Positions 21,984-62,405 of a stretch of 64,000 nt of DNA are shown piece by piece. Within the stretch, counting starts at the first letter, position 1, and the number at the start of each line of letters is the position of its first letter. The notes under the pieces were generated by a model. The model did no database searches. It saw nothing but the letters and a program-made list of their open reading frames with translations, and had not been told where the DNA came from. This DNA is from Halobaculum sp. CBA1158. GTDB lineage: Archaea; Halobacteriota; Halobacteria; Halobacteriales; Haloferacaceae. The stretch spans positions 868,001-932,000 of the forward strand of contig NZ_CP090371.1 of NCBI RefSeq assembly GCF_021431925.1. Direction: 5' to 3'. The position numbers were made by a program, and so were the translations under genes.

Positions 21984-22194
21984 TGGTGGTCTCCGCGGGC
22001 GCTTGCGATTCAGCCGCGTCGAGGAACCCCCGAGCGGCCACATTTCGTCCCGGCGTACCGGGTGCCCGCCGGCGGCCCACCTGCCGGCGAGTTACCCGTA
22101 GTTCCGCGCTCGCGCTGTTAAGGGCTACGTTTCTCCTCCTCCGGCGGTCGAGGGCTCTGCGGACGCGTCGCAGTCGCGGAGATCGCGTCCCCGC

Positions 22195-55888: not shown

Positions 55889-55992
55889 TGGGCCCAGAGG
55901 GATTCGAACCCTCGACCGCCCGGTGTCCCATCCGGCGGTCGGAGCCGACCGGAGTATGAGCCGGGTGCTATACCAGACTAAGCTATGGGCCC
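55889..55992 (-). tRNA. tRNA-Met (CAT) with 30-nt intron
   Basis: 104 nt. Acceptor GGGCCCA/TGGGCCC plus discriminator A at 55889; D-arm GCTTAGTCTGGTATAGC; anticodon stem CCCGG/CCGGG; loop CTCATA-A with anticodon CAT (55956-55958); T-arm GAGGGTTCGAATCCCTC. A 30-nt intron (55925-55954) lies between positions 37 and 38 and can fold as a hairpin CGGTCGG-CT-CCGACCG, fitting bulge-helix-bulge splicing. CCA is not encoded. Elongator Met is more likely than Ile2, because Met introns are usual in haloarchaea. Confidence 0.88.
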
Positions 55993-56094: not shown

Positions 56095-56197
56095 CGCCGA
56101 AGCCAGGACTCGAACCTGGGACCACCTCGTTTCTGCGGGAGACAGGGGACCTGAATCCCGTAACAGCGAGGCGCTCTACCAGCTGAGCTACTTCGGC
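56095..56197 (-). tRNA. tRNA-Asn (GTT) with 30-nt intron
   Basis: 103 nt. Acceptor GCCGAAG/CTTCGGC plus discriminator G at 56095; D-arm GCTCAGCTGGTAGAGC; anticodon stem CCTCG/CGAGG with loop CTGTTA-A; T-arm CCAGGTTCGAGTCCTGG. Intron 56131-56160 between positions 37 and 38; it folds as CGGGA..CAGG-TCC-CCTG..TCCCG. CCA is not encoded. The intron is the same length and position as in the neighbouring tRNA-Met. Confidence 0.9.
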
Positions 56198-57910: not shown

Positions 57911-58930
57911 TTACCCCAGATCGAACCGCTCGCGCAGGTCCTCGACCACGGGGACGCTGTCGGATTCGGGCTCCTTGTCCGGGTCGATCGGCGGGCGACC
58001 GTCGAACGTCTCGTGGACCATGCTGACCCCCTCCGCGAGCGTGTCGAGCCCGTAGCCGCCCTCCAGGACGAACCCCAGGCCTGCTCCGATCTCTCCCGCG
58101 AGCGTCCGCATCCGGTCGGTCATCAGCGCGTACCCCTCCGTCGAGACGCGCATCCGGGAGATCGGGTCGTGACGGTGGGCGTCGAAGCCCGCCGACACGA
58201 GCACCAGGTCGGCGTCGAATCGGTCGATGACGGGCGCGACAAGGTCGTCGATCGCGAGCAGAAAGTCGGCGTCGCCTGCCCCCGCCGGAAGCGGCACGTT
58301 CAGTGTCCCCCTCTCGCCGTCGCCCTCGCCGATTTCGTCGGCCGCGCCGGTGCCGGGGTAGAGCCCCTCTTCGTGGACCGACGCGTACAGCACGTTGCCG
58401 CGGTCGTAGAAGATGTCCTGTGTCCCGTTACCGTGGTGGACGTCCCAGTCGAAGATCGCGACGCGCTCGGCGTCGAGGTCGGGGTCGTCGATGGCCGCCT
58501 GTGCGGCGACGGCGACGTTGTTGACGAAGCAAAATCCCATGGCGTCGTCGGACACGGCGTGGTGACCCGGCGGGCGGCCGAGCGCGAACGGGGTCCGCCT
58601 GCCGGGGTCGCCCGCGTCCGCGAGCGCTTCCTCGGCGGCCCATAGTGCCTGCCCGGCGGCCGCGCGAGCGGCGTTCCAGGTGCCGCCGGAAGCGACGGTG
58701 TCGGGGTCCCAACTGCCGCCGCCGGAGTCGCAGAAGTCGACCACCTCGTCGACGTATCCGGGGTCGTGGACCGCGTCGATGGCGGCGCGGGAGGCGGGGT
58801 CGGCCTCGACGTACTCGACGCCGTGTTTCCGCTTGAGCCCCTCCCTGATCGCGCGGAGGCGGTCCGGGTTCTCGGGGTGTCGGTCGCCGGTGTCGTGGTC
58901 CAGACACGCCTCGCTGTAGCCGAACCGCAT
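57911..58930 (-). CDS. Histone deacetylase family protein
   Basis: 339 residues. The arginase-deacetylase fold motifs are complete: RPPGHHA (His123-His124), DWDVHHGNGTQD (zinc Asp163, His165), LVSAGFDAHRHDP (zinc Asp) and LEGGYGLDTLAEG with the catalytic Tyr. In archaea and bacteria such enzymes act on acetyl-lysine or acetylpolyamines. Here the gene starts 2 nt after the doublet histone gene, so the histone or another acetylated chromatin protein is a natural candidate substrate, as an inference from adjacency. Confidence 0.95.
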   Translation of the reverse strand: MRFGYSEACLDHDTGDRHPENPDRLRAIREGLKRKHGVEYVEADPASRAAIDAVHDPGYVDEVVDFCDSGGGSWDPDTVASGGTWNAARAAAGQALWAAEEALADAGDPGRRTPFALGRPPGHHAVSDDAMGFCFVNNVAVAAQAAIDDPDLDAERVAIFDWDVHHGNGTQDIFYDRGNVLYASVHEEGLYPGTGAADEIGEGDGERGTLNVPLPAGAGDADFLLAIDDLVAPVIDRFDADLVLVSAGFDAHRHDPISRMRVSTEGYALMTDRMRTLAGEIGAGLGFVLEGGYGLDTLAEGVSMVHETFDGRPPIDPDKEPESDSVPVVEDLRERFDLG

Positions 58931-58932
58931 CG

Positions 58933-59367
58933 CTACCCCTCGAAGAGCGCGAAGTACGTCTCGATGTCGTCGGCCTGGACGGTTCGGCGGTCGGCGTGGC
59001 GCGCCAGCAGGGCGGCCGCGCGGGCGACGTTGTCGGCGTAGTCCTCGAGGACGTCCGCGAGCGCGACCCGGGCGTCCATCGAGACGCGATAGGAGTCGTC
59101 GATGTCGAGTCGGGCGATCCGGTCCACCGGCGCGATGGGCAGCGTCAGCTCCGACCGGTCGACCACCTGCTCGACCCCGAAGTCCGCGGGCATCAGGGTC
59201 TTGCGGCCGTCGACGGCCGCCCGCTCGGCCGCATCGACCGCCAGCGACGCCCCGTGCCGTTGCACGCGGGCGGCCAGTTCCTCGGCCGCGCCGGCGCTCA
59301 CCCGGAGGTCACCCGCGTTCCGTCGGATGACGTCGTCGACGGGGGCGAACGGCAACTCGACAGTCAT
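58933..59367 (-). CDS. hstA: Archaeal histone, fused doublet
   Basis: 144 residues from ATG 59367 (MTVELPFAPVDDVIRRNAGD). Two histone folds in one chain: residues about 4-65 (LPFAPVDDVIRRNAG; VDGRKTLMPADFG) and 72-144 (LPIAPVDRIARLDID; ADRRTVQADDIETYFALFEG), the haloarchaeal doublet form that makes a pseudodimer. In haloarchaea it acts more like a transcription factor than a packaging protein. A TATA-like TTATAC is 24-29 nt upstream on the minus strand. The deacetylase follows 2 nt later. Confidence 0.96.
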   Translation of the reverse strand: MTVELPFAPVDDVIRRNAGDLRVSAGAAEELAARVQRHGASLAVDAAERAAVDGRKTLMPADFGVEQVVDRSELTLPIAPVDRIARLDIDDSYRVSMDARVALADVLEDYADNVARAAALLARHADRRTVQADDIETYFALFEG

Positions 59368-59390
59368 ACACATACGCCGGAGTGTGGCGT

Positions 59391-59396
59391 GTATAA
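59391..59396 (-). promoter_or_regulatory. TATA box of the histone-deacetylase operon
   Basis: Minus-strand TTATAC (in GCGTTATACACG) lies 24-29 nt before the histone ATG at 59367, suggesting a leaderless transcript that covers histone and deacetylase. Confidence 0.5.
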
Positions 59397-59457
59397 CGCT
59401 TTCCGTTAGCGTGAGTCGCGCCACCACGACCCCCGCGCCACCGCACCGTCGACGGCG

Positions 59458-61845: not shown

Positions 61846-61918
61846 GTCCGGGTAGGGTAGTGGACTATCCTCTTGGCTTGCGGAGCCAGGGACCGGAGTT
61901 CAAATCTCCGTCCGGACG
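61846..61918 (+). tRNA. tRNA-Arg (GCG)
   Basis: 73 nt, no intron. Acceptor GTCCGGG/TCCGGAC plus discriminator G; D-arm GGGTAGTGGACTATCC; anticodon arm TTGGC-TTGCGGA-GCCAG with anticodon GCG; T-arm CGGAGTTCAAATCTCCG. CCA is not encoded. Its 3' end from the T-loop (61898 to 61920) is the unit repeated in the downstream array, and a TTTT run follows at 61919-61922. Confidence 0.88.
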
Positions 61919-61991
61919 TTTTCGGCGACACAACGCGACGAGCGAAGCGAGGAGCCGTGTCGCCGTCGAAGTTCACACACGGAGATTTGAG
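61906..61991 (+). repeat. 86-bp perfect direct repeat, copy 1
   Basis: Identical to 62263-62348. It begins CTCCGTCCGGACG in the tRNA-Arg 3' end and ends with the inverted GGAGATTTGAG. The separation of 357 bp and full identity indicate recent duplication or gene conversion. Confidence 0.9.
61923..61965 (+). repeat. Hairpin 1 of the tRNA-Arg array
   Basis: Nine-bp stem CGGCGACAC (61923-61931) with GTGTCGCCG (61957-61965), loop of 25 nt with GAGCGAAGCGAG at 61940-61951. The same hairpin recurs inside the second 86-bp copy. Confidence 0.8.
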
Positions 61992-62060
61992 CCGACGAGG
62001 CGCGCGCAGCGAAGCGAGCACGTCTCGGCGAAGTTCAAATCTCCGTCCGGACGTTTTCGA

Positions 62061-62097
62061 GGCGCAACGACGACGAGCGAAGCGAGTCGTCCGCGCC
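62061..62097 (+). repeat. Hairpin 3 of the tRNA-Arg array
   Basis: Outer stem GGCGC (62061-62065) with GCGCC (62093-62097), inner stem GACGA (62069-62073) with TCGTC (62087-62091), closing a loop that contains GAGCGAAGCGAG. The stem sequence differs from hairpin 1 yet remains paired. Confidence 0.75.
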
Positions 62098-62128
62098 GAC
62101 GGTTAGTCTGCACACGGAGATTTGAATC

Positions 62129-62172
62129 GAACAGTCGCAGCCCGCGAGCGAAGCGAGCGGGACCGTCTGTTC
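62129..62172 (+). repeat. Hairpin 4 of the tRNA-Arg array
   Basis: Outer stem GAACAG (62129-62134) with CTGTTC (62167-62172), inner stem CCCGC (62141-62145) with GCGGG (62157-62161). The loop core is again GAGCGAAGCGA. The stem bases differ from the other hairpins, with pairing kept. Confidence 0.75.
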
Positions 62173-62236
62173 AGAGTTCAAATCTCCGTCCGGACGTTCC
62201 TTCACTCACTTCGTTCGTTCAGTCACGTCCGGCCGT

Positions 62237-62263
62237 GTTCACACTCGCTACGCTCGCGTGAAC
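62237..62263 (+). repeat. Hairpin 5 of the tRNA-Arg array
   Basis: Stem GTTCAC (62237-62242) with GTGAAC (62258-62263); the loop ACTCGCTACGCTCGC is a reverse-complement-like form of the GAGCGAAGCGAG core. Preceded by CACTTCGTTCGTTCAG, a sequence type common between haloarchaeal genes. Confidence 0.65.
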
Positions 62264-62348
62264 TCCGTCCGGACGTTTTCGGCGACACAACGCGACGAGC
62301 GAAGCGAGGAGCCGTGTCGCCGTCGAAGTTCACACACGGAGATTTGAG
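62263..62348 (+). repeat. 86-bp perfect direct repeat, copy 2
   Basis: Identical to 61906-61991; carries the partial tRNA-Arg end, the CGGCGACAC hairpin and the inverted T-arm copy, and closes the array 58 bp before the DUF309 gene. Confidence 0.9.
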
Positions 62349-62405
62349 CAGCGAACGAGCGAGCGCGCCCCGGCGCGCCACGGACAGACTGAAACGCGCG
62401 CCGGA

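What the first reader, a model, noticed from the sequence alone, without database searches (positions are those of the whole stretch)
61898..62348. tRNA-Arg is followed by a mirrored array of its own 3' end with structured spacers
Seen: the T-arm/acceptor end of tRNA-Arg(GCG) recurs in direct orientation (61898, 62033, 62176, partial 62263) and, as CACACGGAGATTTGA, in inverted orientation (61976, 62111, 62333), strictly alternating. The shared inverted arm is 12 nt (TCAAATCTCCGT). Inference: the array could be nested integration scars of an element that uses the tRNA end as att site, a palindromic mobile element, or a structured RNA co-transcribed with the tRNA in which each inverted copy could pair with a neighbouring direct copy, including the T-arm of the tRNA itself.
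Basis: partly seen in the sequence, partly recalled or inferred. Interest (0 to 1): 0.8.

Follow-up and report, generated by a model that had tools for sequence, protein, structure and literature searches.

The report
Palindromic insertion units behind tRNA genes
In salt-loving archaea many tRNA genes, including the tRNA-Arg in this window, are followed by short non-coding hairpin units that each carry a copy of that tRNA's own 3' end; the units look like a mobile DNA family that inserts at the two edges of the tRNA T-loop, which strand depending on which edge.

Summary
The array is real (copies at 62033, 62176 and 62263; inverted copies at 61979, 62114 and 62336), but not strictly alternating. 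It is not peculiar to this locus. The same plan follows about a third to a half of the tRNA genes in four genomes surveyed. A generic pattern for it occurs in 53 of about 65 Halobacteriales genomes and in none of about 280 other genomes of the phylum. Each array uses its own tRNA's sequence.

Across 280 tRNAs, downstream copies begin at one of two points: tRNA position 50-53 (162 copies) or 60-61 (72). These are the two edges of the 7-nt T-loop; 14 copies begin at 54-59. Copies at the first edge are preceded by hairpins structured for the tRNA-coding strand; copies at the second, by hairpins structured for the opposite strand (106:10 versus 4:56). Hairpin caps follow DNA-type loop rules. tRNA-distal copies are more decayed. 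One 220-nt stretch is 97% identical between species whose flanking genes are 76-78% identical.

I read this as small non-coding mobile units inserted at the tRNA T-arm through a folded single DNA strand. A tyrosine recombinase acting like an integron integrase is the likeliest enzyme, but none was identified. Ordinary integrase scars and a co-transcribed RNA fit worse. I found no published description.

The parts
61846..61918 (+). tRNA-Arg(GCG), anchor of the array; T-loop (positions 54-60) is TTCAAAT at 61899-61905
   Evidence: ARAGORN, Rfam
61919..61978 (+). T-rich start plus hairpin A1 (cap GAGCGAAGCGAG)
61979..61990 (-). inverted copy of T-loop/T-stem 3' strand (ACGGAGATTTGA)
61991..62032 (+). 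hairpin B1 (cap GCGAAGC on the tRNA-coding strand)
62033..62053 (+). direct copy 1, type 1 (tRNA position 53 to the discriminator base)
62054..62113 (+). T-rich start plus hairpin A2
62114..62126 (-). inverted copy (ACGGAGATTTGAA)
62127..62175 (+). hairpin B2; the 220-nt stretch around A2-B2 is 97% identical in two congeners
62176..62196 (+). direct copy 2, type 1
62197..62262 (-). type-2 hairpins C1 and C2 (GNA cap on the minus strand) with inverted acceptor piece CGTCCGG at 62226-62232
62263..62275 (+). partial direct copy, type 2 (tRNA position 61 to the discriminator base)
62276..62335 (+). second copy of hairpin A1, identical to the first
   Evidence: 72 nt identical including the inverted copy
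62336..62347 (-). third inverted copy
62348..62372 (+). remnant of a hairpin B (GCAGCGAACGAGCGAGCG) that is intact in congeners; no direct copy follows
   Evidence: compare L003, L006, L007, L020

Best explanation
The array is a pile of small (about 90-150 bp) non-coding mobile units inserted one after another at the 3' end of the tRNA gene. Shown: each type-1 unit is hairpin A, an inverted copy of T-loop plus T-stem 3' strand, hairpin B, then a direct copy running from the 5' edge of the T-loop to the tRNA end. Type-2 units have the same plan but their direct copy starts at the 3' edge of the T-loop and their hairpins are built for the other strand. Inferred: a recombinase treats the tRNA T-arm as its core site (T-stem arms as binding sites, the 7-nt T-loop as overlap between staggered cuts). 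The unit takes part as a folded single DNA strand, in which inverted and direct copy pair to rebuild the duplex core site. One strand is exchanged, at the edge that belongs to that strand. The tRNA always keeps an intact 3' end and an older end is pushed downstream. This is how an integron integrase joins a folded attC site to attI, here with the tRNA in the role of attI. The units probably serve their own spread, not the tRNA. The enzyme is unknown; a cellular tyrosine recombinase (PF00589) is likeliest.
For: Edges: of 253 downstream copies, 162 start at tRNA position 50-53, 72 at 60-61 and 14 at 54-59; 6 hits in equal upstream DNA; same pattern in each of four genomes. Strand: nearest GNA/GNNA cap on the coding strand for 106 of 116 type-1 copies and on the opposite strand for 56 of 60 type-2 copies (Fisher p about 1e-30, not corrected for relatedness). 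DNA folding energy gives the same split (119:40 versus 4:63). Cap loops are GNA with any N, and of 19 GNNA loops 18 have a pyrimidine at the third place, against the RNA GNRA rule. Polarity: where an array has two or more full copies the tRNA-proximal one matches better in 21, equally in 28, worse in 1. Turnover: congeners have 0 to 4 units in different order at the same tRNA; a 220-nt stretch is 97% identical where flanks are 76-78%. Spread: near-identical hairpins lie behind different tRNAs in different families and the inverted copy follows the local tRNA (122 versus 30 consensus). PF00589 is present in 97 of 97 good genomes.
Against: No enzyme is linked to the arrays and no excised or newly inserted unit has been seen. 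How a unit that moves to another tRNA comes to carry that tRNA's 3' end is not explained by a plain cassette model; target-site duplication or gene conversion would be needed. Some positions upstream of 53 also match the tRNA (position 52 in 76% of copies), so the first edge is blurred by one or two bases. About a quarter of type-1 units fold better on the other strand, and in G328 the two type-2 units split evenly. Units carry no genes, unlike integron cassettes.
Confidence: 0.5

Rival explanations
1. Ordinary nested integration scars: proviruses and plasmids with tRNA-targeting integrases came and went, leaving repeated tRNA 3' ends.
For: Such islands exist in haloarchaea: G056 tRNA-Glu(CTC) carries an integrase gene directly downstream and repeated tRNA ends 90-210 kb away; PMC3119063 and PMC7921747 describe the same arrangement.
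Against: In that island the identity block begins 21 (or 12) nt before the T-loop, but of 253 array copies none except one full tRNA copy starts upstream of position 50. Scars do not explain the inverted copies, the 90-150 nt periodicity, or hairpin strand matching copy edge. Four scans of viral contigs and searches of phage and plasmid records found no element that carries the units as its att site.
Confidence: 0.15
2. A structured RNA co-transcribed with the tRNA: the hairpins and T-arm complements act in tRNA 3' processing, termination or decoying of tRNA-binding proteins.
For: T-rich starts and strong hairpins directly follow the tRNA; RNA folding is far better than shuffled; inverted copies are complementary to the T-arm.
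Against: Type-2 hairpins are structured for the non-transcribed strand (56 of 60; 63 of 67). Cap loops follow DNA rather than RNA tetraloop rules. Orthologous tRNAs in congeners do without the array (L023, L024). Order and number of units vary freely.
Confidence: 0.12
3. HUH-type (IS200/IS605-like Y1) single-strand transposition of palindromic non-autonomous elements, like PATEs of Haloquadratum, with the T-arm hairpin as target.
For: Hairpins of defined strand, single-strand grammar and no coding capacity fit; PATEs and ~110-bp SMRs that insert into hairpins are known in haloarchaea (PMC3119063).
Against: Y1_Tnp (PF01797) is absent from 40 of 97 good haloarchaeal genomes, among them unit-rich G056, G057 and G054 (pattern counts). 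IS605-type elements make no target duplication, but here 13-21 nt are repeated.
Confidence: 0.13
4. Mutation and homologous recombination only: template switching and unequal exchange between tRNA-end copies build and homogenise the array, with no dedicated recombinase.
For: Copies are identical to the tRNA and 72-nt blocks are identical within the array; gene conversion is common in polyploid haloarchaea (general knowledge).
Against: Does not give two fixed copy edges or the link between edge and hairpin strand, nor the same hairpins behind different tRNAs in different families.
Confidence: 0.1

Closest known systems
Integron gene-cassette arrays (attI, attC, IntI), including archaeal integrons (PMC9668308)
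   Same: Tandem units added at a fixed anchor; inverted and direct half-sites flank a hairpin with unpaired bases; strand-specific single-stranded structure; direct copies begin at G|TTC, compare G|TTRRRY of attC (from general knowledge).
   Different: No integrase gene beside the array; anchor is a tRNA T-arm; units are non-coding; the core sequence changes with each tRNA; both strands are used (type 1 and type 2).
tRNA-targeting integrative elements of haloarchaea (Haloquadratum GI3, Haloferax gibbonsii IGE1-3, SNJ2-type)
   Same: Repeat the tRNA 3' end and keep the tRNA whole.
   Different: Kilobases long with an integrase gene; longer repeats (43 nt in GI3); in the G056 island the block starts upstream of the T-arm; no inverted copies.
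SMR-A short mobile repeats and PATEs of Haloquadratum walsbyi (PMC3119063)
   Same: About 110 bp, non-coding, inverted repeats, insert into hairpin-forming targets.
   Different: Targets are IS605-type palindromes, not tRNAs; no target duplication reported; no tRNA-matched ends.
Casposons at tRNA 3' ends (general knowledge)
   Same: tRNA 3'-end target with roughly 14-bp target duplication, close to the 13-nt type-2 copies; tandem insertion possible.
   Different: Kilobase elements with Cas1; no inverted target copy inside the element.
'Partial tRNAs' adjacent to full tRNAs noted in Haloferax gibbonsii LR2-5 (PMC7921747)
   Same: Probably the direct copies of such units as seen by annotators.
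   Different: No hairpins, inverted copies or grammar described in the passages read.

Membership tests
Integron / CALIN | Integron integrase (IntI) gene next to the array | tested here: not met
   ORFs of 57-64 kb in the window and Pfam on four of them show DUF309, HPP, histone and histone deacetylase genes; no recombinase.
Integron / CALIN | attC-like sites: inverted and direct core around a structured hairpin, polarised single-strand folding | tested here: met
   similarity of plan, not homology.
Integron / CALIN | Cassettes with open reading frames | tested here: not met
   Units are 90-150 bp hairpins.
Integron / CALIN | Recombination of the folded strand by a tyrosine recombinase | not testable with these tools
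   Needs a bench assay; PF00589 present in 97 of 97 good genomes.
tRNA-targeting integrative element scar | Identity block from an integrase crossover to the tRNA end, with an integrase-bearing element at the site | tested here: not met
   Blocks start only at T-loop edges; no integrase or kilobase insert at the array; contrast G056 tRNA-Glu.
IS200/IS605-derived PATE | Mobilised by Y1 transposase | tested here: not met
   PF01797 absent from unit-rich G056, G057, G054; a past supply cannot be excluded.
MITE | Terminal inverted repeats of a DDE transposon plus short target duplication | tested here: inconclusive
   13-21 nt duplications exist, but one inverted copy is internal and tRNA-matched, not an element terminus.
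Co-transcribed structured RNA | Structure conserved on the transcribed strand | tested here: not met
   Met by type 1, opposite strand for type 2.
Known RNA family (Rfam) | Covariance-model match | tested here: not met
   Only the tRNA matches in 61846-62400.

The most novel reading that the evidence does not exclude
A so far undescribed, Halobacteriales-wide recombination system that uses the tRNA T-arm as a universal attachment site: folded single-stranded units of either polarity are exchanged at the matching edge of the T-loop, and tRNA-matched guide copies retarget a shared hairpin from one tRNA to another. In effect it is an integron-like platform anchored on up to half of the tRNA genes, run by an unknown cellular recombinase.
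Probability: 0.3. Interest if true: 0.88.

Novelty: new variant of a known kind. Interest (0 to 1): 0.72.

Why it matters
If right, tRNA genes in a whole order of archaea carry growing records of single-strand recombination events, with a target rule (T-loop edges) and a strand rule that can be read from sequence. That gives direct predictions for an unknown recombinase, a natural comparison to integrons outside the integron family, and a likely source of the 'partial tRNAs' in haloarchaeal annotation. It also suggests why tRNA flanks in haloarchaea differ so much between close species.

Tried and rejected
Viral-contig scans: generic T-loop patterns gave mostly chance or bacterial tRNA-Ser hits; one haloarchaeal provirus contig (L222) has a tRNA-Glu with a unit downstream and no obvious integrase among the ORFs listed, which were not run against a family library. 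Scans with hairpin-B ends gave 16 and 96 stretches, about the number expected by chance from pattern length; apart from L222 these were not examined one by one. Plasmid and phage BLAST: one Natronorubrum plasmid tRNA locus, the rest tRNA or chance. TTCRAAYYCCG outside tRNAs in the own genome: mostly coding coincidences. A first swap control with 10-nt seeds was too noisy because T-loops are alike, so later tests used the left edge of exact acceptor copies. Snapback synthesis as origin of the inverted copy: rejected, because the complement of the acceptor does not precede it. Retro-copy of the tRNA: rejected, the inverted copy lacks the acceptor end. Literature searches bearing on such arrays found no description.

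Full report
WHAT IS THERE. tRNA-Arg(GCG) lies at 61846-61918. It is followed to 62347 by: hairpin A1, inverted T-arm piece, hairpin B1, direct copy (62033-62053), hairpin A2, inverted piece, hairpin B2, direct copy (62176-62196), hairpins C, partial direct copy (62263-62275), a second hairpin A1 with inverted piece identical to the first over 72 nt, and a remnant of another B hairpin. 'Strictly alternating' is not: the step from 62176 to 62263 has an inverted acceptor piece (62226-62232) instead of an inverted T-arm, so it is a second kind of unit.

NOT LOCAL. In the own genome 17 of 44 tRNA genes have at least one downstream copy of their own 3' end, 14 of them in the inverted-hairpin-direct plan, with up to three units (tRNA-Val(CAC)). 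Other complete or partial tRNA sets gave 23 of 44 (G046), 18 of 36 (G328) and 18 of 28 (G056), all from other families. At the orthologous tRNA-Arg(GCG), arrays occur across the order, while some congeners (L023, L024) have none. The generic pattern GGATTTGA-N20-50-GTTCAAATCC occurs in 53 of 345 genomes of the phylum, all in the order (about 65 sampled). It does not occur in about 280 others, and the reversed pattern occurs nowhere. Of 30 such loci 28 lie behind a tRNA on the same strand. A version with the T-stem GGAG/CTCC over 84,980 species gave 55 stretches: 53 haloarchaea, one Woesearchaeote with the same plan behind tRNA-Ile, and one chance hit.

TWO EDGES. I took 280 tRNAs and every exact downstream copy of the 10 nt before the discriminator base, and asked how far left each copy agrees with its tRNA. 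162 copies end their agreement at position 50-53, 72 at 60-61, 14 at 54-59, 4 at 62-63, and one is a whole tRNA; upstream DNA gave 6 hits, 3 of them whole tRNAs. Per-position identity of full copies falls from 0.98 at 53 to 0.76, 0.49 and 0.36 at 52, 51 and 50. The two edges flank the 7-nt T-loop. Each of the four genomes shows the same split. In the one integrase island checked (G056 tRNA-Glu), the identity block starts 21 or 12 nt before the T-loop, so the arrays are not its scars.

STRAND GOES WITH EDGE. Hairpin caps have the form GA-GC-GNA-GC-GA (or with AC/GT), or a four-base GNNA loop. They are frequent downstream of tRNAs and rare upstream. In type-1 units the cap nearest the copy is on the tRNA-coding strand in 106 of 116; in type-2 units it is on the other strand in 56 of 60. 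Folding energies with DNA parameters give 119:40 and 4:63. Fisher p values are about 1e-30 and 1e-23; sequences are related, so the p values overstate, but the split recurs in three of four genomes taken singly, the fourth having only two type-2 units. From general knowledge, GNA triloops and GNNA tetraloops closed by C-G are unusually stable in DNA. Of 19 GNNA loops, 18 have a pyrimidine at the third place, which RNA GNRA loops do not allow. This points to folded single-stranded DNA, of opposite polarity in the two kinds.

DYNAMICS. In 50 arrays with two or more full copies the tRNA-proximal copy matches better in 21, equally in 28, worse in 1: growth at the tRNA end, or loss of correction with distance. 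A 220-nt stretch (A2-B2-C) is 97% identical between this genome and two congeners whose flanking genes are 76-78% identical. Almost the same hairpin (98% over 48-52 nt) occurs behind different tRNAs in different families. Inverted copies match tRNA positions 55-64 and follow the local tRNA where it departs from the common sequence (122 versus 30). They are less exact than direct copies (9.6% versus 3.3% mismatches per base).

MECHANISM (inference). A tyrosine recombinase cuts its two strands at the 5' ends of a 6-8 bp overlap (general knowledge). If the T-stem arms are binding sites and the T-loop is the overlap, the coding-strand cut is at 53|54 and the other at 60|61. Exchange of one folded strand would give copy edges at 53 for units folded on the coding strand and at 61 for units folded on the other: the observed rule. 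Integron integrases work this way with folded attC sites. The alternative of Y1 (HUH) transposition is weakened because Y1_Tnp is absent from 40 of 97 good genomes including unit-rich ones, while PF00589 is in all 97; this does not name an enzyme. What remains unexplained is how tRNA-matched copies are acquired when a hairpin moves to a new tRNA; target duplication (as by casposases) is possible.

VERDICT. Membership in integrons, integrase-island scars, PATEs and Rfam families was tested and not met on at least one defining feature. 'Works like an integron array' remains the best analogy. A search of open-access papers found only passing mention of partial tRNAs next to full tRNAs (PMC7921747) and of ~110-bp mobile repeats inserting into hairpins (PMC3119063).

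Noticed in passing
L339 (Candidatus Woesearchaeota SURF_65), reverse strand: The same unit plan (inverted T-arm, hairpin, exact tRNA 3' end) 103 nt behind tRNA-Ile(TAT), with a differently capped hairpin: a possible occurrence outside haloarchaea.
   Followed up: partly
L090 = G000:C1:1981000-1982200: Similar GCGAAGC-capped hairpins with a TTCGAACCCCG...GGGGTTCGAA palindrome behind what looks like a protein gene, with no tRNA, suggesting the hairpin family may also mark other gene ends.
   Followed up: no
G056:C1:1460655 with repeats at 1549289 and 1670460: Three exact copies of the tRNA-Glu(CTC) 3' part 90-210 kb apart, integrase gene next to the tRNA: large islands whose identity block starts before the T-arm.
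   Followed up: partly
many genomes (for example G056:C1:2758031-2758600): A short (about 210-220 aa) tyrosine recombinase of catalytic-domain size recurs in many haloarchaeal genomes; a candidate to test.
   Followed up: no
window 57911-59427 (-): Archaeal histone-fold gene (58933-59427) directly beside a histone-deacetylase-family gene (57911-58930).
   Followed up: no
window 55889-55992 and 56095-56197 (-): Two tRNAs of 103-104 nt, found by Rfam but missed by ARAGORN without intron search, so probably intron-bearing (ARAGORN with introns reads Tyr and Met there, locus L060).
   Followed up: partly
window 22002-22062 (-): eL15 ribosomal protein leader (RF03144).
   Followed up: no
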